Below the pieces are notes generated by a model. The model was not told the origin of the DNA, did not search any database, and saw only the letters and a program-made list of their open reading frames with translations. A DNA stretch of 64,000 bases from Phanerochaete sordida (Eukaryota; Basidiomycota; Agaricomycetes; Polyporales; Phanerochaetaceae): assembly GCA_019973155.2 (NCBI GenBank), contig BPQB01000015.1, forward strand, positions 546,580 through 610,579, written 5' to 3'. Shown here piece by piece: positions 16,435-63,909 of the stretch; the first letter of the stretch is position 1; every line of letters begins with the position of its first letter. The position numbers and the translations under genes are program-made.

Positions 16435-17115
16435 TCATACCTTTGGATCCCCAGCTTTCGTACCCTCGAGGAGCGCAGCCCAAGCCACGGTCCTGACGTG
16501 CTCCAGCACGGCGCCACACACTCCCAGGTCGCTGCAACCCCCCACCTTCGAGGTATGCACTCCCGCAGAGAGATAATCCAGTACGAGGTTCGCCTGGTCC
16601 AGCACGTCGCCCGGGAAGACCTTGTTGCTCGTGCGCACGACGTGCGGGCAGTAGCGCACCGCGCGGTGCGTGTCGACCCAGACGTGCGTCCCGCCGGGCT
16701 CGCGCGAGTATTTCTTGCGCACGAGCGTGGTGTGGTCCTTCGAGTACACGCGCCAGGCGCGTGTGTCCGGCGGCGGCGCGCCCACGCCGAAGTCGAGCAG
16801 CGCAACCGAGATGATGTCCGGCCAGAGCTCGTGCGGCGCGGGGTCCGAGGGCTCCGGAACCTGCCCCGCACGCCCGGGGAAGAGGGGCCCAAGGCCGTCG
16901 GCGGGGGTGCGTCCGAGGATGTAGCCCTGCAGATCGTACAGCGCGACGCGCTGCGAGTCGGTGAGGCGCAGCGCGGTGTTGTCGTGCAGCTGCGCCACGA
17001 CCGTAGCCACCGTGGAGGCACTGATATCTTTTCCCCAGCGCAGCTCGAATTGGTCTCGACACAAAAGCTTCGTAGGCGGTCGTTCCGTCTGCCAGCCGAT
17101 TCGAACGTTGGACAT
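16435..17115 (-). CDS. F1, member of an undescribed W-G...D-P protein family
   Basis: A single-exon gene of 226 aa. The N-terminal motif is QFELRWGKD, the central motif LRLTDSQRVALYDLQGY, the later block RYCPHVVRTSN-KVFPGDVLDQANLVLDYL, and the C-terminal block GVCGAVLEHVRTVAWAAL. These line up in order and spacing with the other seven family members in the window, though the C-terminal GALDxFE has drifted to GVCGAVLE. No signal peptide or membrane helix. A GGCCAC box is 84-89 bp upstream of the ATG and a TATA-like ACATATACC about 60 bp upstream. No function can be assigned. It might be extended by splicing at the GTATGA site overlapping its stop. Confidence 0.62.
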   Translation of the reverse strand: MSNVRIGWQTERPPTKLLCRDQFELRWGKDISASTVATVVAQLHDNTALRLTDSQRVALYDLQGYILGRTPADGLGPLFPGRAGQVPEPSDPAPHELWPDIISVALLDFGVGAPPPDTRAWRVYSKDHTTLVRKKYSREPGGTHVWVDTHRAVRYCPHVVRTSNKVFPGDVLDQANLVLDYLSAGVHTSKVGGCSDLGVCGAVLEHVRTVAWAALLEGTKAGDPKV

Positions 17116-17226
17116 GATGAGGAATTGGAGTGTGAGGATGGAGATGGGTGAGATGCACTGGCAAACTCGAGGTATATGTACATTTCTCTATGTCCAGAGG
17201 CCACGACCGGTGGCTACAGAGCGGTA

Positions 17227-18130
17227 GAATGTGACATTGAAAGGGCCGTCGTACCGAGACAAAGAGCATCTGGCGGTTATCAAAGAGTCAAGGCACGGTG
17301 AGCTTTCGATTTCTGCCTGGTGCATGACAGCCCTGACTGGTACCTGGGCAAACGACAAAGGTTGCAGAAAAGAAGCATCTAGTACGCAACGTGCAATCCG
17401 AGCTCCTGGATGGTGGCAGCTAAGATTAAGATGAACTTCGAGTATACGTCATTTTGCTCCGCATCAAGTTGTAGAGTCTTGCCAGCGCCCAGAACCACGA
17501 CGCGACCGGCGTGGCGTGCTCGCGCGTGTCGTTCTCCCCTCTTCTTGAACGTCAACGTTCAACCTCGCCGAAACGGTGAGTATAGCTGACATCGTAGGAA
17601 TCCCGGGTAGACACTAACGAGAAGGCCTATACAACATGCGAAGTAGAATCACTCGTGAAGTGCATGCACTGCATCTTGTTATCCAGGCATTTGATGACAA
17701 CATGCGAGCAGGCGGCGCAGCAAAGATCGGTGTACGACGCGTAGAGTATGATTGATCTCATAGCTTCGGGTCCAGCAGGCTGATCAGTCTCATTTCCAGT
17801 TCTGGCGCAGCCATTCCAATTTCCGAGCCTTTCTGTGCGTCTCGTGGTATTGAACAGGGAAGAGATGGTGTAGCGTCGGTACGAGCGACCTGTCGTTCGC
17901 GATGCTCCTCTGTCGTCAGGCTTTGACCTCAGGTCTGGCGGCCACGATCGCGATCATCGTTCGTCCTTTGTTTTGATTCAATAGTCGGTCATCGACACGC
18001 TTTTTAGGCGAACTGAGAAGAGGTCTGCGCTGTGGCCGTCCAACGATGCCTCCGCGTCATAGCATGCAGGCAGTGCATCGCCGCCAGTGTGCGTGACCGG
18101 CCAGCCCGTCCGTGAGTCACCCGCAGCCTA
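17227..18130. other. Intergenic, no gene seen
   Basis: This stretch contains the divergent upstream regions of F1 and F2. Reading frames are short and unpatterned. A CAAGGGCCACG box at 18131-18141, just beyond its end, is shared with the F5 promoter. Confidence 0.4.
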
Positions 18131-18265
18131 CAAGGGCCACGGTCCTCCACCGACGGCTTAGACATCGCATTCACGACCATCTTCACTGTCTACCGTCTGC
18201 TTGTCGCTTTCGGACGCAGGCCGTCCCCACCACTCGCTACCCCACACTCTTTACGACGTCCTGGC

Positions 18266-19009
18266 ATGTCGACACCGCACCTCGCCCCACGCACCTACGC
18301 CGAATGGCTCGAGCTCTGGGGCGAGCTCGACCTCGACGCCGCCGCCGACATGCTCGAGCGCACCGCGCCGTACCTCATCGGCTTCGAGCACCCGCTGAGC
18401 CCCGCGCGGCGCGCGCTCGCCGAGCTCACGCGCACGCTCCGCGCGTGGGTGCACGGCGTGCCCTACGTGCGCGCGCGCGTCGCGCCCGACGACACGGCGT
18501 GCTGGACCTGGACGGAGCAGTGGTGGGAGTTCCCCATGCCCGACACGCGCGCCGCGGCTGCGCTGGAGCGCTACATCCAGGGGCCCGCGCCCGACCCGTG
18601 GCGCGTCTCGCGCGGGTACATCAAGACGCAGGAGATGCTCCGCTTCGTGCCGCACGCGGAGAGCGCGATCATATACTGCGGGCACGCGCGCCGCGGCGGC
18701 GCCCCGCGCGACGAGGTCGACGCCGTCAACGCGGTGCTGCACATCCTGAGCGTACGCGAGTTCCGTGCGTCGTGCGGCGCGCTCGACGACAGCGAGCTCG
18801 CACTGCTCACGCTCCTCAAGCATCGCCTGCTCTGGAGCTTCCAGGGCGCTGGGGGCTTCAGCACCCCAGAGCGCGATGTGTCCGCGTACTGGTTCCACCG
18901 GATGATGCCACCAGAGATCAGGAGGAAGAGAGAGGAGGAAGAGCGGGCGAAGAGACAGCGTCACCGGTATGGTCTGGCCCATTTGCTCATTATGCCATCA
19001 TGCTCATAA
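18266..19009 (+). CDS. F2, member of the W-G...D-P family
   Basis: A single-exon gene of 247 aa starting at the ATG of GGCATGTC. Family blocks in order are AEWLELWGELDLDAAADML, LSPARRALAELTRTL, ESAIIYCGHARRGGAPRDEV, DAVNAVLHILSVREF and CGALDDSELALLTLLKHRLL. The C-terminus adds a very charged stretch (RRKREEEERAKRQRH). Hydrophobic positions match amphipathic helices; no membrane segment or signal is present. Codon use is extremely GC-rich (many GCG, CGC and GAC), more than the flanks. A GGCCAC box is at 18135-18140, about 126 bp upstream. Function unknown. Confidence 0.65.
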   Translation: MSTPHLAPRTYAEWLELWGELDLDAAADMLERTAPYLIGFEHPLSPARRALAELTRTLRAWVHGVPYVRARVAPDDTACWTWTEQWWEFPMPDTRAAAALERYIQGPAPDPWRVSRGYIKTQEMLRFVPHAESAIIYCGHARRGGAPRDEVDAVNAVLHILSVREFRASCGALDDSELALLTLLKHRLLWSFQGAGGFSTPERDVSAYWFHRMMPPEIRRKREEEERAKRQRHRYGLAHLLIMPSCS

Positions 19010-19756
19010 AAGCAATAGCGATGAGGAGTGGAAGCCTCCGCCGACGTGGTACTACACGCTGTCAGTCGATATGTATCGCTGACGGGTCGATACATGTGCA
19101 TCGCGCGCACCGTCTTGCAAGGCATGCCCTACCCTAGGCCAGGCTTCCTCGCCGTCGCGCGTTTCGAAGTCCCAACGGTGGCGTGGTACACACTGCTTTA
19201 TAGGCAGCCCGTCGCGTAGTCTTCCTGACTTCAGGACCAAGCGCACTGGCTCCTGCGGAGGCGGCCGTCGATTAACCTATTCATTCATGATTTAGTCCTT
19301 GTACGCTATACATACAGTATAATACCTACGCTACTTAGCTGTATATTTGGCTCAAACTCCTCGATATGCCACAAGCACCGTCTATATTCCCTGCGAGATC
19401 AGTCGCGCCTGCGGCCTGTTTTGTTCGAAGGAAACACATTACACGCCCTCCTGCTCGAGCTGGCTGGGTGGGTCGCGAGGCGCGCGGAAGCTCAGGCTCT
19501 ACGTCACCCAGCCGCACTTGAATGAGGCCTGCACGCATGAAGTCCTGTACAAGGCGCACTATCAAGCCATCAGAATGCCTTACGCAGAGCAGGTTACCGC
19601 GTCGCCAGCCGAGAGAGATTTCGTGGCCGCACTCGCGAAGCGAATATATGCGGTCTATATTGAAGAAGAAACGAGATGAGAACACACACAGCAACATAAC
19701 ACATACATCAGGGTATCTAGCACCGGTAAAATCATCCAGGAAATCGAGCACATCCT
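19010..19756. other. Intergenic, one weak small frame
   Basis: A frame ending at 19679 encodes LYVTQPHLNEACTHEVLYKA and AERDFVAALAKRIYAVYIEE. It has no upstream ATG in frame, so it would need an unseen first exon. A TATA-like stretch is near 19308-19325. It is too weak to call as a gene. Confidence 0.25.
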
Positions 19757-21849
19757 CTACACAAAGTTCTGCGCCTCGATCCCGACGACAGCGACGCCGC
19801 GCTGCAAGCCCAAGTCAGCACCACTCTCTGCCAGACCAACATCGCAACGCACCTTCCGCGGACAGTTCGCCGTCACGCGCTGGCACCCCCACACCTTGAC
19901 CTCGACCAGGTCCGGACACCCCTCGACGAGCGCCTTGACCGTCCAGTCCGACGCCTCGCGGCACCACCCGACGTCGACGCGGCGCAGGCGCGGCGCGCGC
20001 GCGCCGAGCGTGTTCAGCACGTCCTCGGGCGCGGCCTTCCAGCCGTTGACGTCGACGCTCTCGAGCGCCGCGCCCGAGTGCGCGAGCAGCGCCGCGAGCG
20101 CCGCGCCGCCGAGCTCGGGGTTGCGGCCCAGCGCCGCGTGGCGCAGCGGCGGGTTCGGCGGGGCCGCGGCGCCGGCCCAGGTGGCGAAGAACTCGGCGAC
20201 ACCTGCGTCCGTGAGCTCGGGCGTGAGCGCGAGCGCGAGCGACTCGAGCTGCCGCGTGTGCGGCTTCAGGCCCTGGAAGAGGAAGCCGTCGCCGAGCAGC
20301 GCGTGCCCCGAGAGGTCGAGGTGGCGCAGGCCCGCGCCGACGGCGGTGAGGAGGTCGGTCAGCGCGTCGTTGGAGACGGCCTCGGGCTCGCCGGGCGAGC
20401 TGAGGTCGAGGTACGTCAGCTGTCCTGCGAGCTTCTTGATGTGCGGAAGGAAGTCATCGGCGAGCTTGCCGACTTCCTTTAGGCGCAGCTCCGTGAGACC
20501 TTCGCAGTTCTCGACGAGGCTTTCGATGCACTTGACGTCAAAGCGCGGCGATTGCGTGATGAGGAAGCCGGTGAGCTTCGGATGGGACTCGAAGAAGGAT
20601 TGCCAGGTGGAGGCGTGCACGAGGAAAGGACCGAGCAGCTCGATGCGCGTCAAAGCCGGGAGCGACTTATTCCAAGCGGCGAGAACGCTGTTGTCCATTC
20701 GGCCGCAGAAGTCAAGGCGCAGCGTGGTGAGGTTAGGATTGAGAGAGGCAAGAGCACACAACGAAGGGGGCGTCAGGTCTAAAGGCGGTCAGCAGAGTCC
20801 GAAAGGCCCAAGCGCAGGACATACTAGTTGCATCGTACAAAGTCAGGTTTGTGTTCTGAACATCGTAGAACAGCGTCGCATTCTCGGGCGTTCTGCGGCG
20901 CAATCAGTGTCACGGTCGTGCTTGTGTGAGAAGTACACTCACAGACTGCGGTCCTTCGCTATGGCCTTCGCGATAGAGTCCAGATTCATGCTGCCGATGT
21001 CGCCAAGTGCCTCGACGTCGTCGATATGCGAACTGACAACCTTGATACACATATTCGCGAGGCTTGGCAGCCGATGCTCCTCAAAGTGCGTAACGTTCCG
21101 CTTCTCGGTGAGAGGCTTACGTTTGCGCGGCGCGGCAGGCTTCTTGAACGGGTCGACGCCGGACGCCTTTAGACACGAATGGCAAAGCCAGCCGCCGTTC
21201 GGGGCCTGACGAGTGTACTGGGTCTGCGTGGGTGTGAGAAAGGCTCAGAAAAGGAAGCGGAAGGTGATCATACCACACTGAACTCGTTCCCGCACTTCGA
21301 ACACTCGATGAGGCTGCCGTTGGGCGGCTTCGTCTCATCTTTCCACATCTTCGAGAGCGCAGTGTATGCGTCTTCTTCGTCACTGCCATCGTCGCTGTAG
21401 TCATCGTCGTCTTTCTTCTTACCCTTCTTTGCCTTGGCTTTGGCCTGCGCCTTCAGCTTCGCCTCCGCCGCCTTCGTCAGTTTACGCTTCTTCTTGAGAG
21501 GCACTTCATCGTCTTCGTCTAGGTTGTCTGAGTTGTATTCTCTCTCGACGGGCTGCAAAGTTTGCGTTTAGTCACATGCTCTAGGAGAGTGGCAAAGTGC
21601 GCACCTCGTCGTTCTCCGCCACATCCGCTTCGGCGCTTTCGTCGTTTTCCGCCTGTCTCGAGGGGCCCGCGACGGGCGCCGGCTGCTCAACTTGACGCGT
21701 TCGTACTCTCCGAGCGATGGTAGTTGGTGTGATACCAGATTCCTGCGTCGTGTCAGCCGCACCTCGTCGACAATAACGGGGGTCGCCCGCACCTTCAGGA
21801 ACTCTGTCAGGGCCGACGTCGGGCCACGGACGTTGTTCGACCTTGCCAT
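19757..21849 (-). CDS. RAD7: Rad7-like DNA repair protein with Cys4 and leucine-rich repeats
   Basis: Rad7 works with Rad16 in global-genome nucleotide excision repair. The start at 21849 gives MARSNNVRGPTSALTEFLK, the family N-terminus, spliced to ESGITPTTIARRVRTRQ. Next come an acidic/basic linker (exon 21558-21268), ECSKCGNEFSV and, over an intron, TQYTRQAPNGGWLCHSCL: the Cys4 zinc site conserved in Rad7. Then follow a basic region, LPSLANMCIKVVSSHIDDV and LDSIAKAIAKDRSL. The long 3' exon (20761 downward) is leucine-rich repeats (NPNLTTLRLDFCGRMDNSV, LTELRLKEVGKLADDFL, LRRVDVGWCREASDWTV, VEVKVWGCQRVTANCP). A 51-nt intron near 19800-19850 joins NCPRK to RGVAVVGIEAQNFV. One unusual point is a very GC-rich, Ala-rich middle of the LRR domain. 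Several more introns are present; exact ends between 20761 and 21268 were inferred by family order. Confidence 0.88.
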
Positions 21850-22379
21850 CGTCAAGAGCACCGGAGGTTGTTGGAGGCAACGGGGTCGGGATATGGGCGG
21901 CGACGAAGGCTTGGACGGGAACGACGACGGAGGGGCCGAGGGGGATGATCGAGGTCGCGACAAAAGTTCGACGCGGGCGACGCGCGTGTAATTAAGGATT
22001 GCCCGTTTTGGGTGACGCGTGCCATTATGTAAGCGGCGGAAGTCCTGTGAGGCTCTCAATTGCAAGTACTTGTCGTTAACAGGCTGCCCAGCGTTCTGGT
22101 ATTATGCATGTACAGTCAGATAGACGGCGAATATCCCGACGCAATATTTGGTGGGTGGCGGCAGGCGAGCCGACAGATAGGCAGAATGAGTGCATACGAG
22201 CGGAGAGACACCGCATGAGCAGCACGGCGCACATGATCCCAAACTCTGGAACGACTCCTGGATCCTAGGCCGTCCAATGGAGCAAGAGAGCTCCCGCGTG
22301 TGTAGTGGCACTTAAAAGTCTGTCGGCAATGAATTAATGACACATGCAGGGGTGACGAAAGCGAGCAGGATCTACGCCC

Positions 22380-27672: not shown

Positions 27673-28281
27673 TTAGGCTAAGATCCTCCTCCGGAACGCC
27701 CCCAGATCCCTCATCCGCCGCCAGTTTACCAGCGCGTACTTGACGATATGTAGCGTCAGGGTCTCGAACCGATCGAGCGCCCCGTACTCCTGTGCGAACG
27801 CAGTGGTCCGCGTGAAGTGGATGAGCACGTTGATCGCGTCGATCTCGTCCGCTGGGCGACTCGCGTCCGAGACATTGGCTGTGTACGCGATCCTGTCCGG
27901 ATATCGCGCGCTGAACATCTTGCTGTACTTGACTGACATCCCAAGTTCTGTGGCCGCCAGGTCCACGTCGGTGGTGATAATCCAGCGCTCGCTGAAGCTG
28001 CCGAGGTCCGTGGGGTAGTCGGTGCGGTCGGCCCATACACGGGTGCGAACTGGTGGGCAAGCTGGAGTTGACTTCAGAGCGGCATGAAGGTTTCTCAGAA
28101 CTTGAAGTTCGTTGGGAGTGAACTTGAACGCGAAGGTGTTGTCGGCGATGTCGAGACGCCGCAGTGTGCGGAGCAACATCTCGAGGGCCTCTACGACGAA
28201 AGCAGGGTTATATGAGCCCCATCTCTTCTGGTACCAGTGAATCGAAGTGTAGTCATCGTAGGGTCCATCGAGGTGGGTCAT
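27673..28281 (-). CDS. F3, member of the W-G...D-P family
   Basis: A single-exon gene. The ATG at 28281 (MTHLDGPYDDYTSIHWYQKR) is preferred over an in-frame GTG at 28356, because the GTG region carries GTGGCCACTC and TTTGTCA, the same pair of boxes as in the F5 and F7 promoters. The protein is 202 aa with HWYQKRWGSYNPAFVVEALE, FKFTPNELQVLRNLHAALK, ASRPADEIDAINVLIHF and AQEYGALDRFETLTLHIVK. The last two blocks are among the best copies of the family consensus. No signal peptide or membrane helix. It is divergent from the NIMA kinase gene, with about 390 bp between the two starts. Function unknown. Confidence 0.68.
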   Translation of the reverse strand: MTHLDGPYDDYTSIHWYQKRWGSYNPAFVVEALEMLLRTLRRLDIADNTFAFKFTPNELQVLRNLHAALKSTPACPPVRTRVWADRTDYPTDLGSFSERWIITTDVDLAATELGMSVKYSKMFSARYPDRIAYTANVSDASRPADEIDAINVLIHFTRTTAFAQEYGALDRFETLTLHIVKYALVNWRRMRDLGAFRRRILA

Positions 28282-28334: not shown

Positions 28335-28356
28335 TGACAAAATCTGGAGTGGCCAC
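28335..28356 (-). promoter_or_regulatory. GTGGCCAC/TTTGTCA promoter pair of F3
   Basis: On the minus strand GTGGCCACTC (28356-28347) is followed by TTTGTCA (28341-28335), about 55-75 bp upstream of the ATG. The same two boxes occur in the same order upstream of F5 and F7. Confidence 0.45.
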
Positions 28357-28670: not shown

Positions 28671-31361
28671 ATGTCTTCCCCACTCTCGCTTTATGAGCCC
28701 CTCGACATCATCGGGAACGGCTCTTTTGGCATCATTCGGAAAGTCAGGCGCAAGGTGGACGGCCTGGTGAGCGGCATTCGCGTGTGCCATTTTTTGAGCA
28801 TTTTTGACGAGTTTGATCTGCCAGATCTTTGCGAGAAAAGAACTCAACTTCGAGCGCATGTCCGAGCGGGACAGGAAACAAATAGTGGCGGAAGTGTATG
28901 TCCGCCGCTCGTGGAACGGCTCTCCAGGCACTCACCTCAGGCCCCAGGAACATCCTCAAAGACCTGCACCACGAGAACATCGTGCAATACCGCGACCGCT
29001 ATGTTGACCGCGAGGCGGGCATCCTCTACATCCTCATGGAGTACTGCGGCGGCGGCGACCTTTCGAGCATCATCAAACAGGCACAACGGCATCAGCGGCC
29101 GATCCCCGAGGACACCATATGGAACTATTTCATGCAGCTGTGCCTTGCACTGAGCTATTGCCACCATCCGAACGGGCAGGGACAGGGACGTTTGAGCAGT
29201 GGAGGCAGCGGGGAAGAGAAGGACAGACGACCGCAGATTCTGCACAGAGACCTGAAGCCAGACAATGGTGCGTGGCACGCATACATGCGTATAGCGCATC
29301 ATCCTAACGCATGTATGCAGTATTCCTGGATGAGAACAACTGTGTCAAGCTTGGCGACTTCGGTCTGTCCAAAGCACTCGCGACGGCAAGCTTCGCCCAG
29401 ACCTACGTCGGGACCCCGTACTACATGTCTCCCGAGCTCATGCAAGAGAAGGCGTACGACTCCAAGTCGGACATCTGGTCTCTCGGGTGCCTCATCTTCG
29501 AGCTCTGCGCCCTGAAGCCGCCCTTCGCGGAAGCGAAGACACACGCCGAGTTGAGTATCCTCATCCGTAACGGTCGCATACCCCCTCTGCCCAAGGGATA
29601 CAGTCCCGCGCTGTCGAGTGTCATCAAAGCCATGCTGAACCTGAACCCTGCGATGCGGCCCAGCGCCGCTCAGCTCCTGCAGCACGAGCGATTGGACCTC
29701 GCGTTCAAGGTCGCGGAAACCCAGAAGATGTGCGCAGCTTCTGTCTCTACGCCACGCTCATGCTGACATTGTACAGGCTGAACGCGGTCAAAGTGCACAA
29801 GACGGGCGTGGTCACCCGCGAACGCGAGGTCGCGGCGCGCGAGGCAGCGATTCTTGAGAAGGAGAGCACCCTCACTTCGATGCTTACCCTCAAAGACAAC
29901 GAGATCGCCTCGCTCCGCGCACTGCTTTCGACGGCAGAAGAGACACATCAAACTAAAGTGCGCGAGGCCCTGTTGAAGCGCGATGAGGAGCTCCGCGCGA
30001 TGGTCCTGAAGCAAGAGGCTGACGTCGCGACGCGCATGGCCCGCCGCGAGGAAGAGATCATGGAGGCCGTGCGGCGGCGGGAAGAGGACATTGCGAAGAT
30101 GTGGGCGGACTGGGAGCGCGAGACGCGAGAGACCATGGCGCGCGCCGTCGAGGAGCGCATGGCGTGGGTCGACACGCGCGCCGCCGAACTGGAGAAAGAG
30201 CACGAGCGGCTGCTGAACGCGCAGGCGGAGCTGAAGCACCGGTGCGAGCAGGCCGAGAAGGAGCTCGCCCTGAGCCGGCGCGAGGGCAAGACGCCGCTCG
30301 AGAACGTCAAGAACCTGATGCGCCAGCCGCTCTGGGACGAGGACGCCGCACAGCAGACGCCGCTGAAGAGCAAGCCGCCTGTCTTCGCGACGCCGATCCG
30401 CGGCGGCGCCGCGGACTGCTGCCCGCCGAGCGCGATGAAGGGCGTCGTGCTCACCGCGACGGGCCAGCAGCTCGCGACGCCGAGCCCCGCCGAGTTCGCG
30501 AAGCTCTTCATCGCGACGCCCAAGGTCTCGCTCAACTTTGCGCAGATCTTCGACTTCGAGAGCGAGACGGACGACTCCGAGGCCGAGGGCTACGAGACGG
30601 ACACGCATGTCCCGCACGGCCTCGCCGCCACCGCCCGCGGGCAGAAGCGCCCGCAGATGCACGAGAGTGAACCAGAGGAGTTTGATGATGACGACGACGA
30701 CGAAGACGACACGGAGTGTACGCCCAAGGCGACCTCGCAGCCCCCAGTCCGACCCACAAGGCTTCGACGACCCTCGATACGAGCGTCTAGCTCACGACCT
30801 ACGCTCCTCGAATCGACGTCAGCGCCATCCATTTCCTCAGCGCCATCGCGAGCATCGTCCCGTGCCAGCTCATCCTCAGCAACTTCGACCGGGTCTTCAA
30901 CCTCGACCGCAACGGTACAACCACGGTCACGAACACGTCCTGGCGCCGGAGGCTTCGTGCCCTCCCGCGAACCGGCCGAGTACGACATGTCGGACGAGGA
31001 GAACCTGCCCAGCCCGTTCCTGAAGAAGATCGACCGCGACCGGATAGCACGCACGGCGTCCGCGCCCGTGCACACGCTGCAGCGCGCGCGGCCCGACGCG
31101 CCCGCCGCCTCCGCGCCGCCGCGCACGCGCACGGCCGGCCCGCGCAAGAGCGGCGCACACACGCTGCGCGCCGTCGCCGTCGTGAACGCCGCGCACACGC
31201 ACGGCGTCGCGACGAGCCGCAGCGCCGGCGCGCTCGGCGCGCGCGCGCCCGTGCGCACTGCCAGCGCCGCGCCGACGGTGCATGCGAACGTGCGCTCGAG
31301 CATACAGAAGGCGCGGAACGCGAGCGAGGACGCGCGGAAGGCGCTGGCGTTCCGCACATAG
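28671..31361 (+). CDS. nimA: NIMA-type (NEK2-like) mitotic Ser/Thr kinase
   Basis: Exons 28671-28766, 28825-28895, 28948-29267, 29321-29729 and 29777-31361 join in frame. The kinase domain is complete: EPLDIIGNGSFGIIRKV (Gly loop), FARKELNF (catalytic Lys), ILYILMEYCGGGDLSSIIKQ (hinge), ILHRDLKPDN (catalytic loop), LGDFGLSK (DFG) and VGTPYYMSPELM (activation loop end). A 14-residue basic/Gly-rich insert precedes HRDLKPDN, typical of fungal NIMA. After the kinase comes a long coiled coil (about residues 310-470; EREVAAREAAILEKESTLTS onward). A Ser/Pro/Asp-rich tail follows, with acidic EEFDDDDDDEDD and many Ser runs that could act in turnover. NIMA kinases drive mitotic entry. Exon 2 is very short (71 nt). 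The C-terminal 150 residues are Ala/Arg-rich and GC-driven. Confidence 0.9.
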
Positions 31362-31959
31362 CGCTCTGCGCTCCCTGTGACTGCCGACCCTCGCCGCCCT
31401 ACAAACACCAAGAGTAGACATCCATGGACGGATCGCCGGCGATATTTACTGTTATTTCTTTGTCTCCCATGGCTTCAGGTTCCTGGTTTCCTTGTGCTGC
31501 CCGACACGCGCCCCACTCCGCCACGCTCTTGCGACACCCTCTTGCCATCCACCGCACTCTCACATCGCATACGCCCACTCGGTCCCTTCGTACCACGTCC
31601 GTCCACAAACATATTTACATACCCCGTCTATTTGGTTTCTTTGTATTCGTACGTAATGCAATTTGCCGCAGCGACACGCTGCTTCTTTCTGGACACTCTT
31701 TGGCCTGGAGACGACTCGGCGTCCATTTCATTCTCCTCGTGCCGTCCTTGACTGCTTGCTCCGATGAAACAAAGGTGCGTGCCACACAGATGTGATTTCT
31801 GCGATGCCTGCTGACAAGGACCTTTTCATTTTACTGGCAGGATCGCCACTGCCAGCGTGGGCAGCCTGGCGATGTGGCCCAAAGGGCTTCCAATGTCGCT
31901 ATGATTATTTTCCTGGCCACCTCTGGCACGAATACGAATACGTGCGTGGTGTCGATATG
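31362..31959. other. 3' flank of the kinase and F4 upstream region
   Basis: This is a pyrimidine-rich, AT-richer stretch without a supported gene. It likely holds the kinase 3' UTR and the F4 promoter, with a GGCCAC box at 31915-31920. Confidence 0.4.
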
Positions 31960-31967
31960 TATATATA
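31960..31967 (+). promoter_or_regulatory. TATA box of F4
   Basis: TATATATA lies 79-86 bp upstream of the F4 ATG and 40 bp downstream of the GGCCAC box. Confidence 0.55.
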
Positions 31968-32045: not shown

Positions 32046-33218
32046 ATGGCCTCCCCAGCAGTGTACCGTTGTCTCAGCCAGCAGGAGATCGCCCTCAAAT
32101 GGGGCAAGTACGATCCCCTCATCTCCTTCCGGCGCGTGCACACCGCAGTCATGAAAGATGAACCTTTCCTGGGCGATCTTACCCTGACCGGTGACGAACG
32201 CCGCGTCTTCAACAACTTGTATCGCTACGCTATGGAACGCAAGCTCGCTGGTCGACAGCGTCCGTCTATCCTCGGGGACACCGCCCCGTCCACGCCCGAT
32301 CCTCTGCGACGCATGCCCAATATCCCGGAGAAATGGGACCAGCCCGCCCCGGACCAGCTCTCACGCGTTTTCCCTCACGGTGTCGACCACGGAGGCATCT
32401 ACTCGATCCTTTACACAAGCTCGTGCAAGGACGGCGTGCTCCACTACCGACCGTACGTCCACGAATGGCCCGGCGAGCCGCGGGACATGCTTGAGTGTAT
32501 CAACATCGTCTGCGACTACCTGCGCAGCGACGACTTCGCGACCGCGTCCGGCCCCTTGACCCGCTTCGAGATGGACACGCTCATGCTCCTCCGGCGCGTC
32601 GCGATCCACCGCGCGCACGAGACCCCGGGCTACGCGCGCATGCCCTGGCGCGACTTCGTCCTCAAGTGGGGCGCCTTCGACGTCCCGCTCGCGATGCAGG
32701 AGGTCCTCGCCCTCTACACGCTCTCGGCCGCCATCCGCCAGGCGCTGGCGCTCTCCGCCGCCGACGAGAAGCTGCTCCACGGGCTCAGCGACTGGTTCGA
32801 GAGCCCCGACAGACGCGACGCGCCGATCCTGCTCCCGTGCGAGACCCGGACGCGCATCGCACCCGACGAGCACGCCGGCTGGGTCGAGGAGTGGCTCGCG
32901 CCGGACTGCTGGACGGACCTTTACCTCGTGCAGACGCCCGGGCTCGTGGCGGCGGTGCAGAAGGTCGTGTACGCGTGCACCTCCGCCGTGCGCGCGGACG
33001 GCACCGTCGTCGTCGAGTACACGCCGTCCGTCGCCTCGGCCCCGGGCGAGGAGTGCAGCTACGACCAGGTCCTCAACAACCCGAACGTCCTCTACGACTA
33101 CTTCCGCACGGATCTGGTCGCAGACCAGCGTGGCGCGCTCACAGACGACGAGCTTCGCCTCTTGTCGACGCTGAAACGCGTCTTTACCTTCCAGGCGAAG
33201 ATCCAGGCGATGCTTTAG
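32046..33218 (+). CDS. F4, tandem two-domain member of the W-G...D-P family
   Basis: A single-exon gene of 390 aa containing two copies of the family domain. Copy 1 (residues 1-195) has SQQEIALKWGKYDPLISF, LTLTGDERRVFNNLYRYA, VLHYRPYVHEWPGEP, DMLECINIVCDYLRSDDFAT and GPLTRFEMDTLMLLRRVAIH. Copy 2 (about 200-390) has PWRDFVLKWGAFDVPLAMQE, LALSAADEKLLHGLSDW, NPNVLYDYFRTDLV and RGALTDDELRLLSTLKRV. The two copies differ in most positions, so the fusion is old or fast-diverging. No signal peptide or helix. The intronless structure is notable among intron-rich neighbours. Function unknown. Confidence 0.72.
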   Translation: MASPAVYRCLSQQEIALKWGKYDPLISFRRVHTAVMKDEPFLGDLTLTGDERRVFNNLYRYAMERKLAGRQRPSILGDTAPSTPDPLRRMPNIPEKWDQPAPDQLSRVFPHGVDHGGIYSILYTSSCKDGVLHYRPYVHEWPGEPRDMLECINIVCDYLRSDDFATASGPLTRFEMDTLMLLRRVAIHRAHETPGYARMPWRDFVLKWGAFDVPLAMQEVLALYTLSAAIRQALALSAADEKLLHGLSDWFESPDRRDAPILLPCETRTRIAPDEHAGWVEEWLAPDCWTDLYLVQTPGLVAAVQKVVYACTSAVRADGTVVVEYTPSVASAPGEECSYDQVLNNPNVLYDYFRTDLVADQRGALTDDELRLLSTLKRVFTFQAKIQAML

Positions 33219-33900
33219 TAGCGAACTGGGGGCGGTAGAAGTCATGTCCTGTTTGGCGATACATGTTTACCTGTACACCTAATATACAATATTGATGTTC
33301 TCATCTGCTGTAGAATTTGTCTGACTTATGGCACTGTTATGTCCGGGGACCGAAACCGCGTCGCTATATGTGGCGTATGTTGCCACTGGCGCCACTGAGT
33401 TCGGGCGACTCTGCGGTATACGTATGTATATTCCTCGGCTGTGTTGCCAAAATATTTTTGCAATGGCCTGAAATTCCATCCGCTCGCACGAGAAAGTATC
33501 AGGCTGCTTGGCTGCTTAATCAGCGTCATCGACATGATGGTCGTTGCAGCAGAACGTGGCGATCTCGTCGTGGAAACACGTCTTGCGGCAGGCGGCTGCC
33601 GTAGAACTGCTTGCTCGGGATGAGGTGATCATCTCAAGCATTGAATCTGACAAAGGCTGGCGTGACCCTCTGCGGTATCGAGCCATGAATGAGCTCAATG
33701 GATTCGCAGCAACAATGGCATTCGAAGTCCTTCCCAGGTTCATGTTTGAATGGGTGTGGAATCGGAGAACTCGGGAGAAGTAATTCATTGATCCAAGCAC
33801 AATCTTTGCGATCGTGCGGTTGCCTTTGATTTCACCGCTTATATTCCTAGAGACGGCCACATCCTAAAGTCTCGGTCACGTTCTTGCAAAGACGTTAACA
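33219..33900. other. Intergenic, no gene seen
   Basis: The stretch is AT-richer. A short frame at about 33544-33783 (ESDKGWRDPLRYRAMNELNG) has no partner exon or paralogue in the window and is not called. Confidence 0.35.
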
Positions 33901-33977
33901 CGGTGGCCACTCGTGCCTGGCCTTTGTCATACGTAAGCAAGGGCCACGCCCTCGGAGTGGAAGCCTACAGGTATAAA
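33901..33977 (+). promoter_or_regulatory. F5 promoter: duplicated 30-bp block and TATA box
   Basis: 33901-33930 is CGGTGGCCACTCGTGC, four bases, then CCTTTGTCAT. It matches 27 of 30 bases of the F7 promoter (minus strand, 47245-47216). A second GGCCAC is at 33942-33947. TATAAA at 33972-33977 lies about 50 bp upstream of the ATG. Confidence 0.65.
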
Positions 33978-34025: not shown

Positions 34026-34904
34026 ATGTCCCATCCCCAAGACGCCAAATCTCGCTTCGACTTCGTCCCTCGTCCGGTTGCGCTGGCCGCAGCCCACGTC
34101 CGTCCGAAGCCCATTGCCACCAAATCGACCGCCAAGGAAGCCGACGACGACATTATATCCATTCCATCTTCCCCACCACCCGCTTCGCTCCAGCCTGCGT
34201 GGTCGTATCCCCAGGTCACCCAAGAGATGTACGAGGTCCGCTGGGGGTCGCACAACCCGCGCCACGTGCAGCGCGCGATCGCCCTGCTGCGCGAGCTCGT
34301 CAACTTCGGAGAGTTCTGCGCCTCGCATCTGCGCCTGACCGGCGACGAGCTGCGCGTGCTCGACGTGCTGGAGTCTTGCCTCGCAGGGGACGCGTACTGG
34401 ATCGCACGCGGGGAGCCCCGCCCGCCCATCCGCGCTAGCCCTCGCGAGCCTCTGGTCCCGGTCATCCAAGAGACATGGGAGGAAGACCTCGCGATGGTGC
34501 GGCGCGCGCGGCGCGAGGGCCGCACGCTGAGCTACCGCAAGGTGTGGCGCATGCGGAACCAGCCTAGCGGCGAGCTCGGCTGCGGGCTGGTGCTCACTCC
34601 CGAGCTGCGCGACACGGAGCCCGAGAAGGGCGACGGGCCATACGACCACATTGATGCGGCGAGCGTGTTCTTCGACTACGTCACCTCGGAGGCCTTCGCA
34701 GAAGTGCATGGCGCGCTCGATAAGTTCGAGTTCGGCACGTTGTTCCTCCTGCGACGGCACGTCGTATGGTGGCAGCGCGAGGCGCGGCTCAAGGCCTGGA
34801 TTGTGGCCAAGGAGAATAGCAAGGCATTGGAACAGGCCGAGGGGAAGCATAAGCTTACCGAGAACACAACCGTGGTGGTGCCGCGGAGGAAGGTCAAGGG
34901 GTAG
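34026..34904 (+). CDS. F5, long-form member of the W-G...D-P family
   Basis: A single-exon gene of 292 aa. The ATG at 34026 gives MSHPQDAKSRFDFVPRPVA and is chosen over the longer frame because TATAAA sits just upstream and F7 starts at the equivalent place. A basic/Pro-rich leader of about 60 residues precedes the domain: TQEMYEVRWGSHNPRHVQRA, LRLTGDELRVLDVLESCLAG, a Trp/Arg middle (RTLSYRKVWRMR), DHIDAASVFFDYVTSEAFAE and GALDKFEFGTLFLLRRHVV. The last part is KENSKALEQAEGKHK and a TTVVVPRRKVKG end. F7 (46249-47127) has the same length and the same ends (FDFVPRPVA, VVLPRRK). The leader could be a targeting or flexible region. Function unknown. Confidence 0.72.
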   Translation: MSHPQDAKSRFDFVPRPVALAAAHVRPKPIATKSTAKEADDDIISIPSSPPPASLQPAWSYPQVTQEMYEVRWGSHNPRHVQRAIALLRELVNFGEFCASHLRLTGDELRVLDVLESCLAGDAYWIARGEPRPPIRASPREPLVPVIQETWEEDLAMVRRARREGRTLSYRKVWRMRNQPSGELGCGLVLTPELRDTEPEKGDGPYDHIDAASVFFDYVTSEAFAEVHGALDKFEFGTLFLLRRHVVWWQREARLKAWIVAKENSKALEQAEGKHKLTENTTVVVPRRKVKG

Positions 34905-36015
34905 ACCGCTACTGTTACGTCCCGAGTACATACTCTGTAAGGTCCAGCGTTATCGATAACCATCCGTGTTACGGAAGACTATCCTTGAATTACCCGGGTG
35001 CAGAATTCACAAGGCAGACGATTGGTAGGTGCCGCACTGTCGATTACCTTGACGCTGTATCCGGTGAATGGCGACGACTGTTTATCTAATGAGATCTGGT
35101 GGACACGCAGCGAGACAAAACGGCACGAGGGAACGTACTCACGGTGACTATGAGTCTGAGCACAATCGCTGCAGCCTAGATCTTTGTGGGCTATGTAGCT
35201 TCCTCATCAGTGCCACGAGCAAATACATCCCCTTTGCAATATTGCACGTCGATCCTTTGCACCACATGATCCATGCCGGCTTCATGTGCTTGATACAACG
35301 GTGCTCCTAGCTGCACGAAGGTAGCGAGCTGGCCAGGAGTCGTACCATCAGCCTCGACCAATTCAAGGAGTTCCAGGTCGTACCACCACATGCGTAGCTT
35401 GCGACGACGATGGCTGGAAGGCGGACTAGATTCGACAGGATGTAAGGCGCCAGTAATCCCCGCAAGGTGATCCACACGGCTCGCACGTCTGACCTTGATA
35501 AGCCCGCCGGCGGAGTCGACGCTATCGGTGCGATCCACAATTTGCGAAGACCGCCACGTTCGCCGAGAAGTACGAAGCAATCGATTAATTTGAGGCTTAC
35601 ACCCTGCATCTGACCAAGTAAGCCCTAATCAAATGTCAACAGGAGAAGAGCGGCACTAAGTCCGCGACGTACACGAGTCAATTGTAGTGCGTGATCGCGA
35701 ACCTTCCGCCCATATCATGCAATATGTGCTGGGACGCTTGCTGCCGTCGAAGGCGACGTTAGAAAAAGCACTCGATAGCATACATGTTGCACTGTTAGGC
35801 TTCCGTTGTAGACGGCGTCATGGAGTTCGACGTACGTACCTTGGGAACCGGGACACAGTAAGAAGGCTTCGGACGGGGCCTTGGCCTTGTGCTGACAGAA
35901 CAAGTGGCGAGAGGTGTGACAGCTGATAGGAAATAGTACACATTATAGCTTTGGTTATACGGTAGTAGACTCTACGATGATAAATAGAGTTAAAGTAGGG
36001 CAAGCAGCAGCCGGT
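34905..36015. other. Intergenic between the F5 and F6 3' ends
   Basis: Only short, motif-free frames are present. The sequence is AT-richer than the genes. A frame at 35307-35609 on the minus strand was considered and not supported. Confidence 0.4.
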
Positions 36016-36555
36016 CTACGCCAAGCGGACGCCACACTTAGCGTCGGAGATGATCCGCTTGTACCAGAAGAGGTGGTTGCGCTCGTCATGCGTCAGCCGG
36101 CCAGGCTTGTTGCACTCCGCGAAGGCCTCCGTGTCGACGTACGCGAGGAGCGAGTTGAGGATATCCAGCGTGTTCGAGTAGTGCTCGCCGGGCTGATAGG
36201 GCCGGCCCGTGTACGCGCAGTGCGCCGCGAAGCCGTCCACGACGCGCGACGGCTTCGGCGCGTAGCCTGGCCGCGGAGGCGGGCACGCCTCGGGCTTGAA
36301 CTTCTCGCAGACGGCGTACGCCTGAAAGCCGCGGCAGGCACTGTGCGCGGGCTGTGGGAGGCGGCCGCGGTCGAGCGGGGCGGCGGACCAGCAGGCGTTG
36401 AGCATCGCACTGAGGACGTAGAGGAAGCGGCGCTCGTCTTCGTTCCAGAGCATGTAGTGCTGCAGCTCGTTGGAGAGTGCGGTGAGGTCTTCGGGGTGCG
36501 GTGGGATGCCCCAAATGAGAGAGTATGCGGCAGTCTTCGGCTGGTGGTGCGACAT
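36016..36555 (-). CDS. F6, short-form member of the W-G...D-P family
   Basis: A single-exon gene of 179 aa: MSHHQPKTAAYSLIWGIPPH, LWNEDERRFLYVLSAMLNAC, a conserved Pro-rich middle (YAPKPSRVVDGFAAHCAYTG), RPYQPGEHYSNTLDILNSLL, AYVDTEAFAECNKPG and RLTHDERNHLFWYKRIISDA. It pairs most closely with F8 (47655-48215): TxAYxxxWG, NDEERRF, VVDGxxxxCxYxGRPY and DAERNHLxWYK are shared. The short form lacks the long leader and basic tail of F5 and F7. A TATATAA box is on the minus strand at 36670-36664, about 110 bp upstream. No GGCCAC box was seen. Function unknown. Confidence 0.7.
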   Translation of the reverse strand: MSHHQPKTAAYSLIWGIPPHPEDLTALSNELQHYMLWNEDERRFLYVLSAMLNACWSAAPLDRGRLPQPAHSACRGFQAYAVCEKFKPEACPPPRPGYAPKPSRVVDGFAAHCAYTGRPYQPGEHYSNTLDILNSLLAYVDTEAFAECNKPGRLTHDERNHLFWYKRIISDAKCGVRLA

Positions 36556-44663: not shown

Positions 44664-44670
44664 TATAAAA
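44664..44670 (+). promoter_or_regulatory. TATA box of methyltransferase paralogue 2
   Basis: TATAAAA lies 57-63 bp upstream of the ATG at 44727. Confidence 0.55.
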
Positions 44671-44726
44671 CTCTGACACCTCGTTCCTGGCCTCCACCTT
44701 TTCCCTCCTCGACCCCTGACGACGCC

Positions 44727-45821
44727 ATGGCCGTCCTCGGCGTCACCGGCGCCGTTGTCTACGCCCAGCGGAACCCGCGCTTCGTCCTGCTGCTCGTCGT
44801 CTTCCTCTCCTTCAGCACGCTCCTTCTGCTCCCATGGCACCCTGAGTCTTCTCTGTCAATCAGCGGCTACCTGCCCAACAAGTTCCGAGGGTCGGTCTCG
44901 CTCGAGGAGTTCGTGCGGCAGGAGGAGCTGCGCTACGCGGACGTCCTCGCGCAGCGCCAGGACATGATCAAGCACTACGGCCCGAACCCACAAGACATTG
45001 ATTCGTGCGTATCCTACTTGCATGGCACGCCGCCGTCGCTGATTGTCGCTGCAGGTTCCCGCCCGGCGACATCTTCTACACGCTCTGGGACTTCTTCATC
45101 CCGGCGTTCAACTGCCCACACCGGCTCGACCGCCTGGGCGCGCTCGGGGACGGCGGCAAGTGGGTGTGCGGCATCGACGCGATCGCGCGGCAGCGGCACC
45201 CGTGCGTCGTGTACAGCTTCGGCGTGAACCACGACAGCTCGTACGAGGCCGCGCTGCTCCAGCGCGCGCCGGAGTGCGAGATCTGGGGCTTCGACTACAG
45301 CGTAACGATGTTCGGCCCCGAGATACACAACAACCCGGTGCTGGCGTCCAAGACGCACTTCTTCCCCTACAAGCTCGGCGCGCACGACAACGCGCACCTC
45401 TCGCCGCCCGAGTTCACCATCCAGGAGCTCATGCGCCGCAACGGCCACGAGTTCATCGACATCCTCAAGGTCGACGTCGAGGGCTCCGAGTTCGACTCGC
45501 TCGCGGCGTTCCTCAAGCCCTTCGTGGGCCCGAACGCGCCGCCGCTGCCCATCGGTCAGCTCGAAATCGAGATACACGCGTGGGGCGACCTCGGCAGTTT
45601 CGCGTACTTTTACCCCTGGTGGACCCTCCTCGAGCGGGCGGGCCTGCGGCCATTCTTCACCGAACCCAATATCGTGCACGTCAGCCATCTCCAGGCGAGA
45701 CCGGACGTTGTCGAGGTGTGTCTCAGCCTTCCTTTGTCACGAGTCGAACGCTGACGACGCCCCGCAGTACTCGCTGCTGAACGTGCGTGGGCAGCACGCT
45801 CTCGTTACCTCCAATTGGTAG
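44727..45821 (+). CDS. Membrane-anchored methyltransferase-domain protein, paralogue 2
   Basis: Exons 44727-45004, 45055-45715 and 45768-45821. A single helix near the N-terminus (FVLLLVVFLSFSTLLLL) anchors a lumenal or extracellular catalytic part. Core blocks are FYTLWDFFIPAFNCPHRLDR, GDGGKWVCGIDAIARQ, VVYSFGVNHDSSYEAALLQR, EIWGFDYSVTMFGPEIH, FIDILKVDVEGSEFDSLAAF (canonical D-V-E-G-S-E), IEIHAWG and LRPFFTEPNIVHVSHL. It is METTL24/FkbM-like and about half identical to the gene at 14519-15665. It lacks the intron that splits the Trp of FYTLWDFF in that copy. Substrate unknown; localisation inferred from the anchor. Confidence 0.83.
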
Positions 45822-45892
45822 AACCTTTTCGCTTTCCTGCCACGCTGGGTGTGCATCTCGGGACTTCATAGGGGAGATAGCAATGGATAATA

Positions 45893-46131
45893 GAGAGTTT
45901 GCGAAAGCGCCGGCGGTTGCCTGCACAAACGCCGGCGCTTTCGCGAGCTCGTTATTTCTCTGGACTCGCGCCGTTTCTGACAGTCTGCTCTGGCGGAATG
46001 TATTGCTGGCAGCCCTCTAGACCTATTCTAATATACAGTATTTCCCGAAGTACTCTGGGCGCGGAGATGCACCATCCGCCGGGGCGTTTTCGCAACGGTT
46101 TAGGCAACCGCCGGCGCTTTCGCAAACTCCC
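45893..46131. mobile_element. Non-autonomous inverted-repeat element (MITE), 239 bp
   Basis: The 29-bp ends are inverted copies: 45893-45921 starts GAGAGTTTGCGAAAGCGCCG and 46103-46131 is its reverse complement with one mismatch. TAATA directly flanks both ends (45888-45892 and 46132-46136), consistent with a 5-bp target duplication. A second pair of sub-terminal GCCGGCG-type repeats lies inside (about 45928-45944 and 46078-46097). No coding frame is present, so a transposase would have to act from elsewhere. The superfamily cannot be named from this alone. Confidence 0.8.
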
Positions 46132-46248
46132 TAATAGCAGTGTCAATGTAATCAAAAGTATGCTCTCCGACCCTCTGCCTTGTGATTCCTGAACGGCATG
46201 GCGCCATCGGGCTGCAGATCACTGATAACGTTGAAGAGCGCAGTCCTG

Positions 46249-47127
46249 CTACATCCCGACCTTTCTACGCGGCAAAACTACGGTCGTGTTGTGCCCTGAC
46301 GTCCAGTCACGGGTGGGATAGACCGCTGCAGCGCCAAGCTTGCCTTTCTCCTCAGGCTTTTCCAGTCCCTTGCGCTGCACCTCGTGCTCCCACCACACGA
46401 CATGCCGGCGCAGCACGCACAGCGTGCCGTGCTCGAACGCGTCGAGCGCACCATACTGCGCTGCGAACGCCGCCGAGCACGCGTAGTCGACGAACGCGTG
46501 CACCGCGTCGACGACGTCGTGCGGCCCGCGGTCCTTCCCAGGCACCTCCGCGCGCAGCTCGGCGACGAGCTCCACCGCGGGCCGTACGCCCACCGTGCCC
46601 CACGTCTTGCGGTAGTGCAGCGTGCGTCCCTCGCGCCGCGCTTGCTGCACGGTCGCGACCGGGCACTCCCGTTCTTCCTGCACGGCCAGCGCCTCGGGCA
46701 CGGGGGCGCGAGGGCGCGCGTGGATGCGCGGGCGTGGTTCGCCGCGTGTGGCCCAGTACCCGTCCCCAGTGAGGCACGCCTCGAGCACGTCGAGCACGCG
46801 CAGCTCGTCGTCCGTCAGGCGCAGCGGCCCGGTGCGGAAGTGCCCGAAGTTGACGAGCTCGCGCAGCTGGGCGATCGCGTGCCGCGTGTGGCGCGGGTCG
46901 TGCGTGCCCCAGCGTGCCTCGTATTCTGCCTGCGTGGTCTGGCGGTATGACCACGCATCTGAAGACGTGGCGGGCGGGGAGAAGGGGGTGAATATCACGT
47001 TGTTGTCGCCCTGCTTGGGTGTGGACTTGGTGGTGCTGGGCTTCGGGTGGGCGGAGGCTGCGGCCTGCCGCGCGACCGGCCTAGGGACGAAGTCGAAGCG
47101 AGGCTTGATGTCTTGTGAACGGGACAT
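46249..47127 (-). CDS. F7, long-form member of the W-G...D-P family
   Basis: A single-exon gene of 292 aa, the same length as F5. The ATG at 47127 gives MSRSQDIKPRFDFVPRPVAR. Blocks are TQAEYEARWGTHDPRHTRHA, LRLTDDELRVLDVLEACLTG, RTLHYRKTWGTVGV, DVVDAVHAFVDYACSAAFAA, QYGALDAFEHGTLCVLRRHV and a TTVVLPRRKVGM end. It is the closest relative of F5 and shares its promoter block and C-terminus. The DNA between the two genes is otherwise unrelated, so the copied unit is only gene plus promoter. The strand is opposite to F5. It is divergent from F8 with about 530 bp between the starts. Function unknown. Confidence 0.73.
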   Translation of the reverse strand: MSRSQDIKPRFDFVPRPVARQAAASAHPKPSTTKSTPKQGDNNVIFTPFSPPATSSDAWSYRQTTQAEYEARWGTHDPRHTRHAIAQLRELVNFGHFRTGPLRLTDDELRVLDVLEACLTGDGYWATRGEPRPRIHARPRAPVPEALAVQEERECPVATVQQARREGRTLHYRKTWGTVGVRPAVELVAELRAEVPGKDRGPHDVVDAVHAFVDYACSAAFAAQYGALDAFEHGTLCVLRRHVVWWEHEVQRKGLEKPEEKGKLGAAAVYPTRDWTSGHNTTVVLPRRKVGM

Positions 47128-47200
47128 CTCTGTCAATGCTGTAGTATGGCGGACCAGGGGCGAGGCCGCTCGCGTTATGTATGTGAGAAGCCACCCGGAC

Positions 47201-47245
47201 GTGGCCCTTCAATGCATGACAAAGGGTAAGCACGAGTGGCCACCG
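47201..47245 (-). promoter_or_regulatory. F7 promoter block shared with F5
   Basis: On the minus strand 47245-47216 reads CGGTGGCCACTCGTGC, four bases, CCTTTGTCAT, 27 of 30 bases identical to 33901-33930. A following AAGGGCCACG is also shared. The block ends about 88 bp before the ATG, against about 95 bp for F5. Confidence 0.65.
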
Positions 47246-47570
47246 TATTGACTGCCCTGCAAGACCGTAACCAGGGCCGTGGGTTGTGGCCCTCTTTCTG
47301 GATCTAGGTGACGTCCTGACAGACAAGGATCGGGTCGCAACGATTGTGCTCAGACCATGTCTGGCGCTGTGAGTGCACCTTCATGCTCCTTCAAACCGGG
47401 TTCTTTTGCCATCATTTCCCTTCGCCACAGGCACAAAGAAATTCCTCCTTTGACGTTTTCAATGAATTCCATCCAAGGATCGGCATCATAGACGGCCACA
47501 ACAGCCTTTGTAGGACTAAATTGCTTTGGCCGATGACCTCACTCCGAGCAAGCAATAGGGCCCGAGGGAA

Positions 47571-47577
47571 TATAAAA
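47571..47577 (+). promoter_or_regulatory. TATA box of F8
   Basis: TATAAAA lies 78-84 bp upstream of the F8 ATG. A GGCCAC box with CCTTTGT after it lies further upstream (47494-47511). Confidence 0.55.
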
Positions 47578-47654
47578 TCATACAAGAGGCGTCGGTTCTC
47601 CTACATCGCAGCGCACCTCACCCCCCTAGTCCAACACTCTCGCCGACATCAACC

Positions 47655-48215
47655 ATGTGGCAGACAATCGCCAGCTCCGAACCCAAGACCCAAGCCTACA
47701 TCGCTGTCTGGGGCGATCCTCCCAAGCCCGAGTGCCTGGACATGCTCCCGCCGGTCCTCAAACGTTTCAAGGTGTACAACGACGAGGAACGCCGCTTCAT
47801 CGGCTCACTCCGGGACGTTCTGCACGCTGTCTGGACCAAGCAAGTATGCGATCGCCGCCGCCTGCCTCCCAACTGGAAGCCCATGCACGGAAGCTCGAAG
47901 AACTTCGAGCCCCATTCCTTCATCGAAGACTACATGTACCTTCCTACTGCTTCCGGCGAGGGCTATCCTGTCGCCGAAATTTCGGGCGTGGTCGACGGTC
48001 GTGTCGGGAAGTGCATCTACGTCGGCCGCCCGTACTACCTGAACCCTGGCCAGAACTACAACGACGCGCTGGAAGTCGTGCTCTCCCTCCTGGCATTTTC
48101 CGAAACAGAAGACTTCAAGATGTGCACCCAGCGCCTCAACGACGCCGAACGGAACCATCTGCTCTGGTACAAAAGCATGGCTTTCGAGGAGAAGTACTGC
48201 GTTCTGATCAGCTAG
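47655..48215 (+). CDS. F8, short-form member of the W-G...D-P family
   Basis: A single-exon gene of 186 aa. The order is KTQAYIAVWGDPPKPECLDM, YNDEERRFIGSLRDVLHAVW, ISGVVDGRVGKCIYVGRPYY, LNPGQNYNDALEVVLSLLAF, SETEDFKMCTQ and RLNDAERNHLLWYKSMAFEE. It is closest to F6. The C-terminal G-x-L-D-x-F-E of the long forms is replaced by a RLxxxERNHLxWYK form in both short members, which defines a subfamily. No leader or tail, no membrane helix. Function unknown. Confidence 0.72.
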   Translation: MWQTIASSEPKTQAYIAVWGDPPKPECLDMLPPVLKRFKVYNDEERRFIGSLRDVLHAVWTKQVCDRRRLPPNWKPMHGSSKNFEPHSFIEDYMYLPTASGEGYPVAEISGVVDGRVGKCIYVGRPYYLNPGQNYNDALEVVLSLLAFSETEDFKMCTQRLNDAERNHLLWYKSMAFEEKYCVLIS

Positions 48216-63900: not shown

Positions 63901-63909
63901 GCTCCTTCC

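What the first reader, a model, noticed from the sequence alone, without database searches (positions are those of the whole stretch)
16435..48215. Undescribed intronless family: eight genes, nine domains in 32 kb
F1 (16435), F2 (18266), F3 (27673), F4 (32046, two domains), F5 (34026), F6 (36016), F7 (46249) and F8 (47655) share, in order: Y-x3-W-G-x2-(D/N)-P; L-T-x-D-E-x-R-x-L; a middle with P and D-x-(I/L)-(D/N)-x-(V/L)-N/F-x-(L/F)-x-(D)-Y; and G-x-L-x-(D)-(F)-E-x2-T-L-x-L-(L/R)-R. All eight are single-exon while almost every other gene here has several introns. I do not recognise a described domain. The density suggests recent local expansion, possibly by duplication of gene plus promoter.
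Basis: partly seen in the sequence, partly recalled or inferred. Interest (0 to 1): 0.88.

Follow-up and report, generated by a model that had tools for sequence, protein, structure and literature searches.

The report
Unnamed fungal gene family, shared promoters
Eight small intron-free genes in this fungal stretch belong to one old, fast-changing protein family that the domain libraries searched here do not recognise, and they carry the same pair of short DNA signals in front of them as an unrelated gene cluster elsewhere in the genome, which suggests they are switched on together.

Summary
Eight single-exon ORFs carry nine copies of one ~200-residue domain; with each copy left out in turn, a profile of the other eight still finds it (E 1.6e-5 to 1.2e-38). 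No match in Pfam, NCBIfam or PDB sequences, no confident fold match. One more member was detected on another contig (F10) and a broken copy inside the cluster. "Recent expansion" is mostly wrong: apart from F5/F7 and F6/F8, identities are 10-29%. Gene-plus-promoter duplication holds for F5/F7 only. New here: upstream regions share GGCCAC and ACAAAG (12 and 9 sites in seven promoters; 1 and 2 of 100,000 random draws reach this). F10 has both; unrelated single-exon F-box-like genes on contig C13 have GGCCAC in four of four and ACAAAG in two of four; six hand-picked other genes have neither. Best reading: a soluble, lineage-restricted family under a shared, probably HMG-box-linked, programme. Function and expression are not shown; relatives in other fungi could not be searched.

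The parts
16435..17115 (-). F1, single-exon member, 226 aa
   Evidence: leave-one-out E 1.6e-5
18266..19009 (+). F2, single-exon member, 247 aa
   Evidence: leave-one-out E 2.5e-10
27673..28281 (-). F3, single-exon member, 202 aa; modelled (pTM 0.78)
32046..33218 (+). F4, two-domain member, 390 aa (halves 24% identical, so not a recent internal duplication)
34026..34904 (+). F5, 292 aa, with an N-terminal extension of low model confidence (residues 1-60)
35353..35630 (+). broken F3-like copy (stops and a frame change); described only
36016..36555 (-). F6, single-exon member, 179 aa
46249..47127 (-). F7, paralogue of F5, 292 aa
47655..48215 (+). F8, paralogue of F6, 186 aa; divergent from F7
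17199..17264 (-). F1 promoter sites: GGCCAC -89, ACAAAG -149 (a second ACAAAG at -245)
17940..18140 (+). F2 promoter sites: GGCCAC at -326, -234, -131; ACAAAG at -300
28349..28356 (-). F3 promoter palindrome GTGGCCAC (region shared with the divergent protein kinase gene starting near 28671)
31874..31967 (+). F4 promoter: two GGCCAC and a TATA box
33855..33977 (+). F5 promoter: four GGCCAC (two of them one palindrome), ACAAAG at -104, TATA box at -54
47201..47291 (-). F7 promoter: four GGCCAC (two of them one palindrome), ACAAAG at -97
47494..47576 (+). F8 promoter: GGCCAC -161, ACAAAG -149, TATA box -84

Best explanation
This is a lineage-restricted family of small soluble cytosolic or nuclear proteins built on one helix-plus-three-strand domain, old and fast-evolving, kept as a loose local cluster with at least one unlinked member. 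The genes are read as a set: two short elements, GGCCAC (often the palindrome GTGGCCAC) and ACAAAG (an HMG-box type core), placed mostly 60-300 bases before the start codon, recruit shared regulators that switch the family on together with unrelated multi-copy genes such as a single-exon F-box-like cluster. The likely setting is a developmental or mating-related stage, and the proteins most likely act as interaction modules rather than enzymes. Shown: the family, the shared elements, the extra member. Inferred: lineage restriction, co-expression, the regulator class, the stage and the molecular role.
For: Family: leave-one-out profiles. Unlinked F10: 34.3 bits with the nine-domain profile, E 2e-6 at an assumed 1.5 million frames; it has GGCCAC -159, ACAAAG -240, TATA -83 although it was not used to find the motifs. 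Motifs: GGCCAC ranks first of the 986 hexamers seen in the 200-base upstream regions, 15 against 0.88 expected. With F7 dropped as a duplicate, 12 GGCCAC and 9 ACAAAG in seven 300-base promoters, both present in 6 of 7; 1, 2 and 0 of 100,000 random draws reach this. The five GGCCAC clusters in the 64 kb window lie before members. GGCCAC-ACAAAG pairs within 60 bases occur at six places in 114 kb, five of them before members (9 of 10 pairs). Control: 0 of 6 non-family gene starts carry either element within 300 bases. Four F-box-like genes on C13 have GGCCAC (4 of 4) and ACAAAG (2 of 4) within 300 bases. No transmembrane-like stretch (highest 19-residue mean hydropathy 1.42). F3 model pLDDT 76.6, pTM 0.78. 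ACAAAG cores serve HMG-box regulators in fungi: PMC3248468 (passages), PMC3730723 (passages).
Against: No expression data. Pairs of GGCCAC 22-52 bases apart are not in excess genome-wide (124 and 117 against 136 and 110 for the reversed pattern), so no broad regulon built on pairs shows. F6 lacks GGCCAC within 300 bases (only at -388). No listed ACAAAG site extends to the exact smut element ACAAAGGGA or the Podospora site (A/G)ACAAAGAA (contexts). The C13 region was fetched because of its GGCCAC pairs, so its GGCCAC count is biased; B1 and B2 carry no ACAAAG within 300 bases. Four other GGCCAC-ACAAAG places showed no matching gene class. The control set is six genes that I picked by clear N-termini; a seventh gene examined in the same call, of a neighbouring multi-copy family, does have three ACAAAG. 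TATA boxes do not discriminate (3 of 6 controls). Nothing shows a molecular activity.
Confidence: 0.5

Rival explanations
1. A neutral, locally duplicating orphan family under weak constraint: the shared elements are ordinary promoter parts of this fungus, and the proteins have little or no function.
For: F5/F7 domain dN/dS is 0.82 (bootstrap 0.56-1.22); a broken copy lies in the cluster; young genes in Agaricomycetes show more developmental expression variation, possibly from weaker constraint (PMC8893723, abstract and passages).
Against: Whole-gene F5/F7 dN/dS 0.63 (0.43-0.86) and F6/F8 0.33 (0.06-0.53, dS 1.65 near saturation) are below 1; nine single-exon genes stay open although most domains share only 10-29% identity; 0 of 6 control genes carry either element.
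Confidence: 0.27
2. Members are diverged parts of a known family (enzyme or adaptor) that sequence profiles miss.
Confidence: 0.15
3. The intron-free genes came from reverse-transcribed or element-borne copies spread by a mobile element.
For: All nine genes (F1-F8, F10) are single-exon frames.
Against: F5/F7 share about 420 bases of promoter, so that copy was made at DNA level; copies are not dispersed: nine of the ten matched places lie in one 32 kb stretch; the repeat scan (40 bases or longer) listed no repeats bracketing a member (shorter terminal repeats were not looked for).
Confidence: 0.05

Closest known systems
F-box-like single-exon cluster on contig C13 of the same genome (Pfam PF12937)
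   Same: single-exon, head-to-tail, diverged copies (32-56% identical), GGCCAC 61-276 bases upstream in four of four, ACAAAG in two of four
   Different: unrelated protein with an F-box-like N-terminus (two of four above the curated cut-off, the first tested as a part only); no family domain found there
Smut pheromone response element bound by Prf1, and HMG-box sites of Podospora (PMC3248468, PMC3730723; passages only)
   Same: ACAAAG core in front of a set of genes
   Different: no exact ACAAAGGGA or (A/G)ACAAAGAA in the listed contexts; GGCCAC is not mentioned in the passages seen
ATP:cobalamin adenosyltransferase fold (PDB 6d5x, 1nog)

Membership tests
Any Pfam-A or NCBIfam family | score above the curated cut-off | tested here: not met
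   8 of 8 window proteins below every cut-off; F10 no Pfam match (NCBIfam not run on F10)
PDB-represented families | profile match by sequence | tested here: not met
   0 sequences with E <= 10 for the nine-row profile
ATP:cobalamin adenosyltransferase (PduO type) | same fold over most of the domain | tested here: inconclusive
ATP:cobalamin adenosyltransferase (PduO type) | conserved ATP and cobalamin binding residues | not tested
   no residue mapping done
HMG-box-regulated gene set | ACAAAG core in the promoter | tested here: met
   8 of 8 within 300 bases; preceded by A or G in five of eight: F1, F2, F4, F5, F7
HMG-box-regulated gene set | exact smut element ACAAAGGGA or Podospora site (A/G)ACAAAGAA | tested here: not met
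   contexts of all sites listed
HMG-box-regulated gene set | binding and induction by an HMG-box factor | not testable with these tools
   needs binding assay and RNA-seq
F-box-like | PF12937 or PF00646 match | tested here: not met
   no such match for F1-F8 or F10

The most novel reading that the evidence does not exclude
GGCCAC plus ACAAAG is a cis-regulatory code that ties together unrelated, fast-evolving, multi-copy gene families (this domain family, the C13 F-box-like cluster, and the multi-exon family without a Pfam match just left of the window) into one developmental or mating regulon, so that new local gene copies join the programme by inheriting or acquiring the same two elements.
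Probability: 0.33. Interest if true: 0.72.

Novelty: new variant of a known kind. Interest (0 to 1): 0.5.

Why it matters
Fungal genomes hold many lineage-restricted genes with no recognised domain, usually set aside as orphans (general knowledge, not from a call). Here one such family is shown to be real and old rather than noise, and its promoters carry a shared two-part signal that also marks an unrelated gene cluster. That gives a concrete, testable way into when and why such genes are used, and a way to look for co-regulated orphans by promoter instead of by protein.

Tried and rejected

Literature: GGCCAC with basidiomycete and promoter gave one paper, on a fruiting-body protein (listing only). 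The listings (11 of 11 shown; 16 of 16; 6 of 6; 10 of 1,503; 8 of 13) showed no title describing this family; that is not proof that it is not in print. One search timed out and was rerun in a faster form.

Full report
Setting. The window is the last 64 kb of contig C15 in an unnamed 40.8 Mb, 222-contig genome, GC about 60%. A DUF6535 protein and 40S ribosomal SA in broken frames point to a fungus, and DUF6535 to mushroom-forming basidiomycetes (the latter recalled, not tested). The tool holds no relatives of this genome.

The observation. They are coding by codon-position composition. Leave-one-out profiles over 1768 open frames of at least 40 codons in 114 kb recover each of the nine domains, E 1.6e-5 (F1) to 1.2e-38 (F7); over all runs the best non-member frame has E 0.057 and the best reversed sequence 0.04. 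W, G, one L and one R are the invariant positions. Glu, any residue, aromatic recurs in 8 of the 10 aligned domains, in the first strand of the F3 model (alignment read by eye).

Extent. Single-protein searches of the whole genome with F1-F6, F8 and F10 (F7 was not a query) and two consensus searches find the nine domains, a broken F3-like copy at 35353-35630 with in-frame stops, and one unlinked single-exon gene, F10, at C28:402989-403786. The nine-domain profile scores F10 at 34.3 bits, E 2e-6 for an assumed 1.5 million frames. The searches are not fully sensitive: F8 scored only 0.016 and 0.96 with the two consensus queries, so more distant members may exist.

Age. Apart from F5/F7 (57%) and F6/F8 (39%) the pairs are 10-29% identical. 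Only those two pairs are supported in the tree (100/99 and 100/100); five of seven inner branches are open. F5/F7: dN 0.29, dS 0.46; domain part alone dN/dS 0.82 (0.56-1.22); F6/F8: dN 0.55, dS 1.65. This is an old or fast-diverging family, not a recent burst. The two Methyltransf_22 genes at 14838-15662 and 45002-45751 are a pair of similar depth (dN 0.35, dS 0.59), and each lies next to a divergent member pair (F1/F2, F7/F8). A block duplication would explain the order, but F1/F7 and F2/F8 are only 19% identical, so it is not shown.

Promoters. In the 200 bases upstream of the eight genes GGCCAC/GTGGCC occurs 15 times against 0.88 expected from 114 kb, in 7 of 8 (not F6), the top of 986 hexamers by a wide margin; in 300 bases ACAAAG/CTTTGT occurs 10 times against 1.2, in 8 of 8. 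F5 and F7 promoters are homologous (score 193, shuffle maximum 44). Dropping F7, seven promoters hold 12 and 9 sites and 6 of 7 hold both; 1, 2 and 0 of 100,000 draws of seven random 300-base stretches reach these. GGCCAC clusters (two or more sites within 120 bases, a palindrome counting as two): five in the 64 kb window, all before members; three more in the 50 kb to its left, two of them single palindromes. GGCCAC-ACAAAG pairs within 60 bases: 10 in 114 kb at six places, 9 of them at five places before members. Apart from F5/F7 no pair of upstream regions passed the alignment test (F6/F8 below its shuffles; the other pairs not more than 4 points above the best of 40 shuffles).

Outside tests of the promoter code. 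F10 was not used to define the motifs and has GGCCAC at -159, ACAAAG at -240 and a TATA box at -83. Six non-family gene starts that I picked by clear N-termini have neither motif within 300 bases (0 of 6), among them a lone F-box-like gene on C14; a seventh gene in that call belongs to the neighbouring family described below. Genome-wide, GGCCAC pairs 22-52 bases apart are no commoner than the reversed pattern (124 and 117 against 136 and 110), so pairs are not a general promoter feature; four of these matches are the F5 and F7 promoters. In the listed part of the matches (the list is cut off) six rows fall at C13:525-539 kb. There lie four single-exon F-box-like genes (PF12937; two above the curated cut-off, two below, the first tested as a part), with 4, 3, 2 and 4 GGCCAC sites in 300 bases and 0, 0, 3 and 4 ACAAAG sites. 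The region was chosen by GGCCAC, so only the ACAAAG count and the first gene (B1), whose sites the pattern did not list, are independent. Their promoters do not clearly align with the family's (B1-F7 and B3-F10 just exceed 50 shuffles). Four other places with both motifs gave no such class. TATA boxes occur in 4 of 8 members against 3.6% of random stretches, but also in 3 of 6 controls, so they do not discriminate.

Left neighbour. Just left of the window lies another local multi-copy family; four frames of it or its neighbours in L008 have no Pfam match. The copy starting at L008:8080 is multi-exon (read by eye); it has three ACAAAG within 300 bases and GGCCAC at about -372 and -384. If the code is real, it is not confined to intron-free genes.

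How it probably works. ACAAAG is the core bound by HMG-box regulators of mating and sexual development: the smut element is ACAAAGGGA (PMC3248468, passages) and Podospora sites are (A/G)ACAAAGAA (PMC3730723, passages). Neither full site was found before the members. Young genes are over-represented among developmentally expressed genes in mushroom fruiting bodies in most species studied (PMC8893723, abstract and passages). I therefore infer a developmental or mating-linked programme with an HMG-box factor and an unidentified GGCCAC-binding partner, and interaction modules as products. The stage, the factors and the molecular role are inference.

Verdict. Relatives in other fungi and expression remain untested.

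Noticed in passing
14838-15662 and 45002-45751: Two Methyltransf_22 genes of similar divergence to F5/F7, each next to a divergent member pair; possible old block duplication.
   Followed up: partly
C13:531680-540590 (L038/L039): Head-to-tail single-exon F-box-like genes with GGCCAC (and in two of four ACAAAG) upstream, plus a shorter relative between the third and fourth.
   Followed up: partly
L008:6028-6910, L008:8080-9267, L009:1432-2314: Another local multi-copy family left of the window (no Pfam match for the L008 frames tried), two copies nearly alike by eye and on opposite strands, with the same promoter elements nearby.
   Followed up: partly
L040:2930-3072 (C4): Five GGCCAC sites in about 140 bases around an ACAAAG; the match printed contains the exact nine-base smut-type element. 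Nearest gene not settled.
   Followed up: partly
211-1424 against 9163-9731 and 11829-12145: Long inverted repeats (75-89% complementary) at the left end of the window; genes not identified.
   Followed up: no
63907-64000: The contig ends in two copies of a 42-base tandem repeat.
   Followed up: no
C28:401298 and C28:405677: F10 is flanked on both sides by similar genes (proteins beginning MATNFASIPILDF and MATDFSSIPVLDF), which look like dioxygenases by recall.
   Followed up: no
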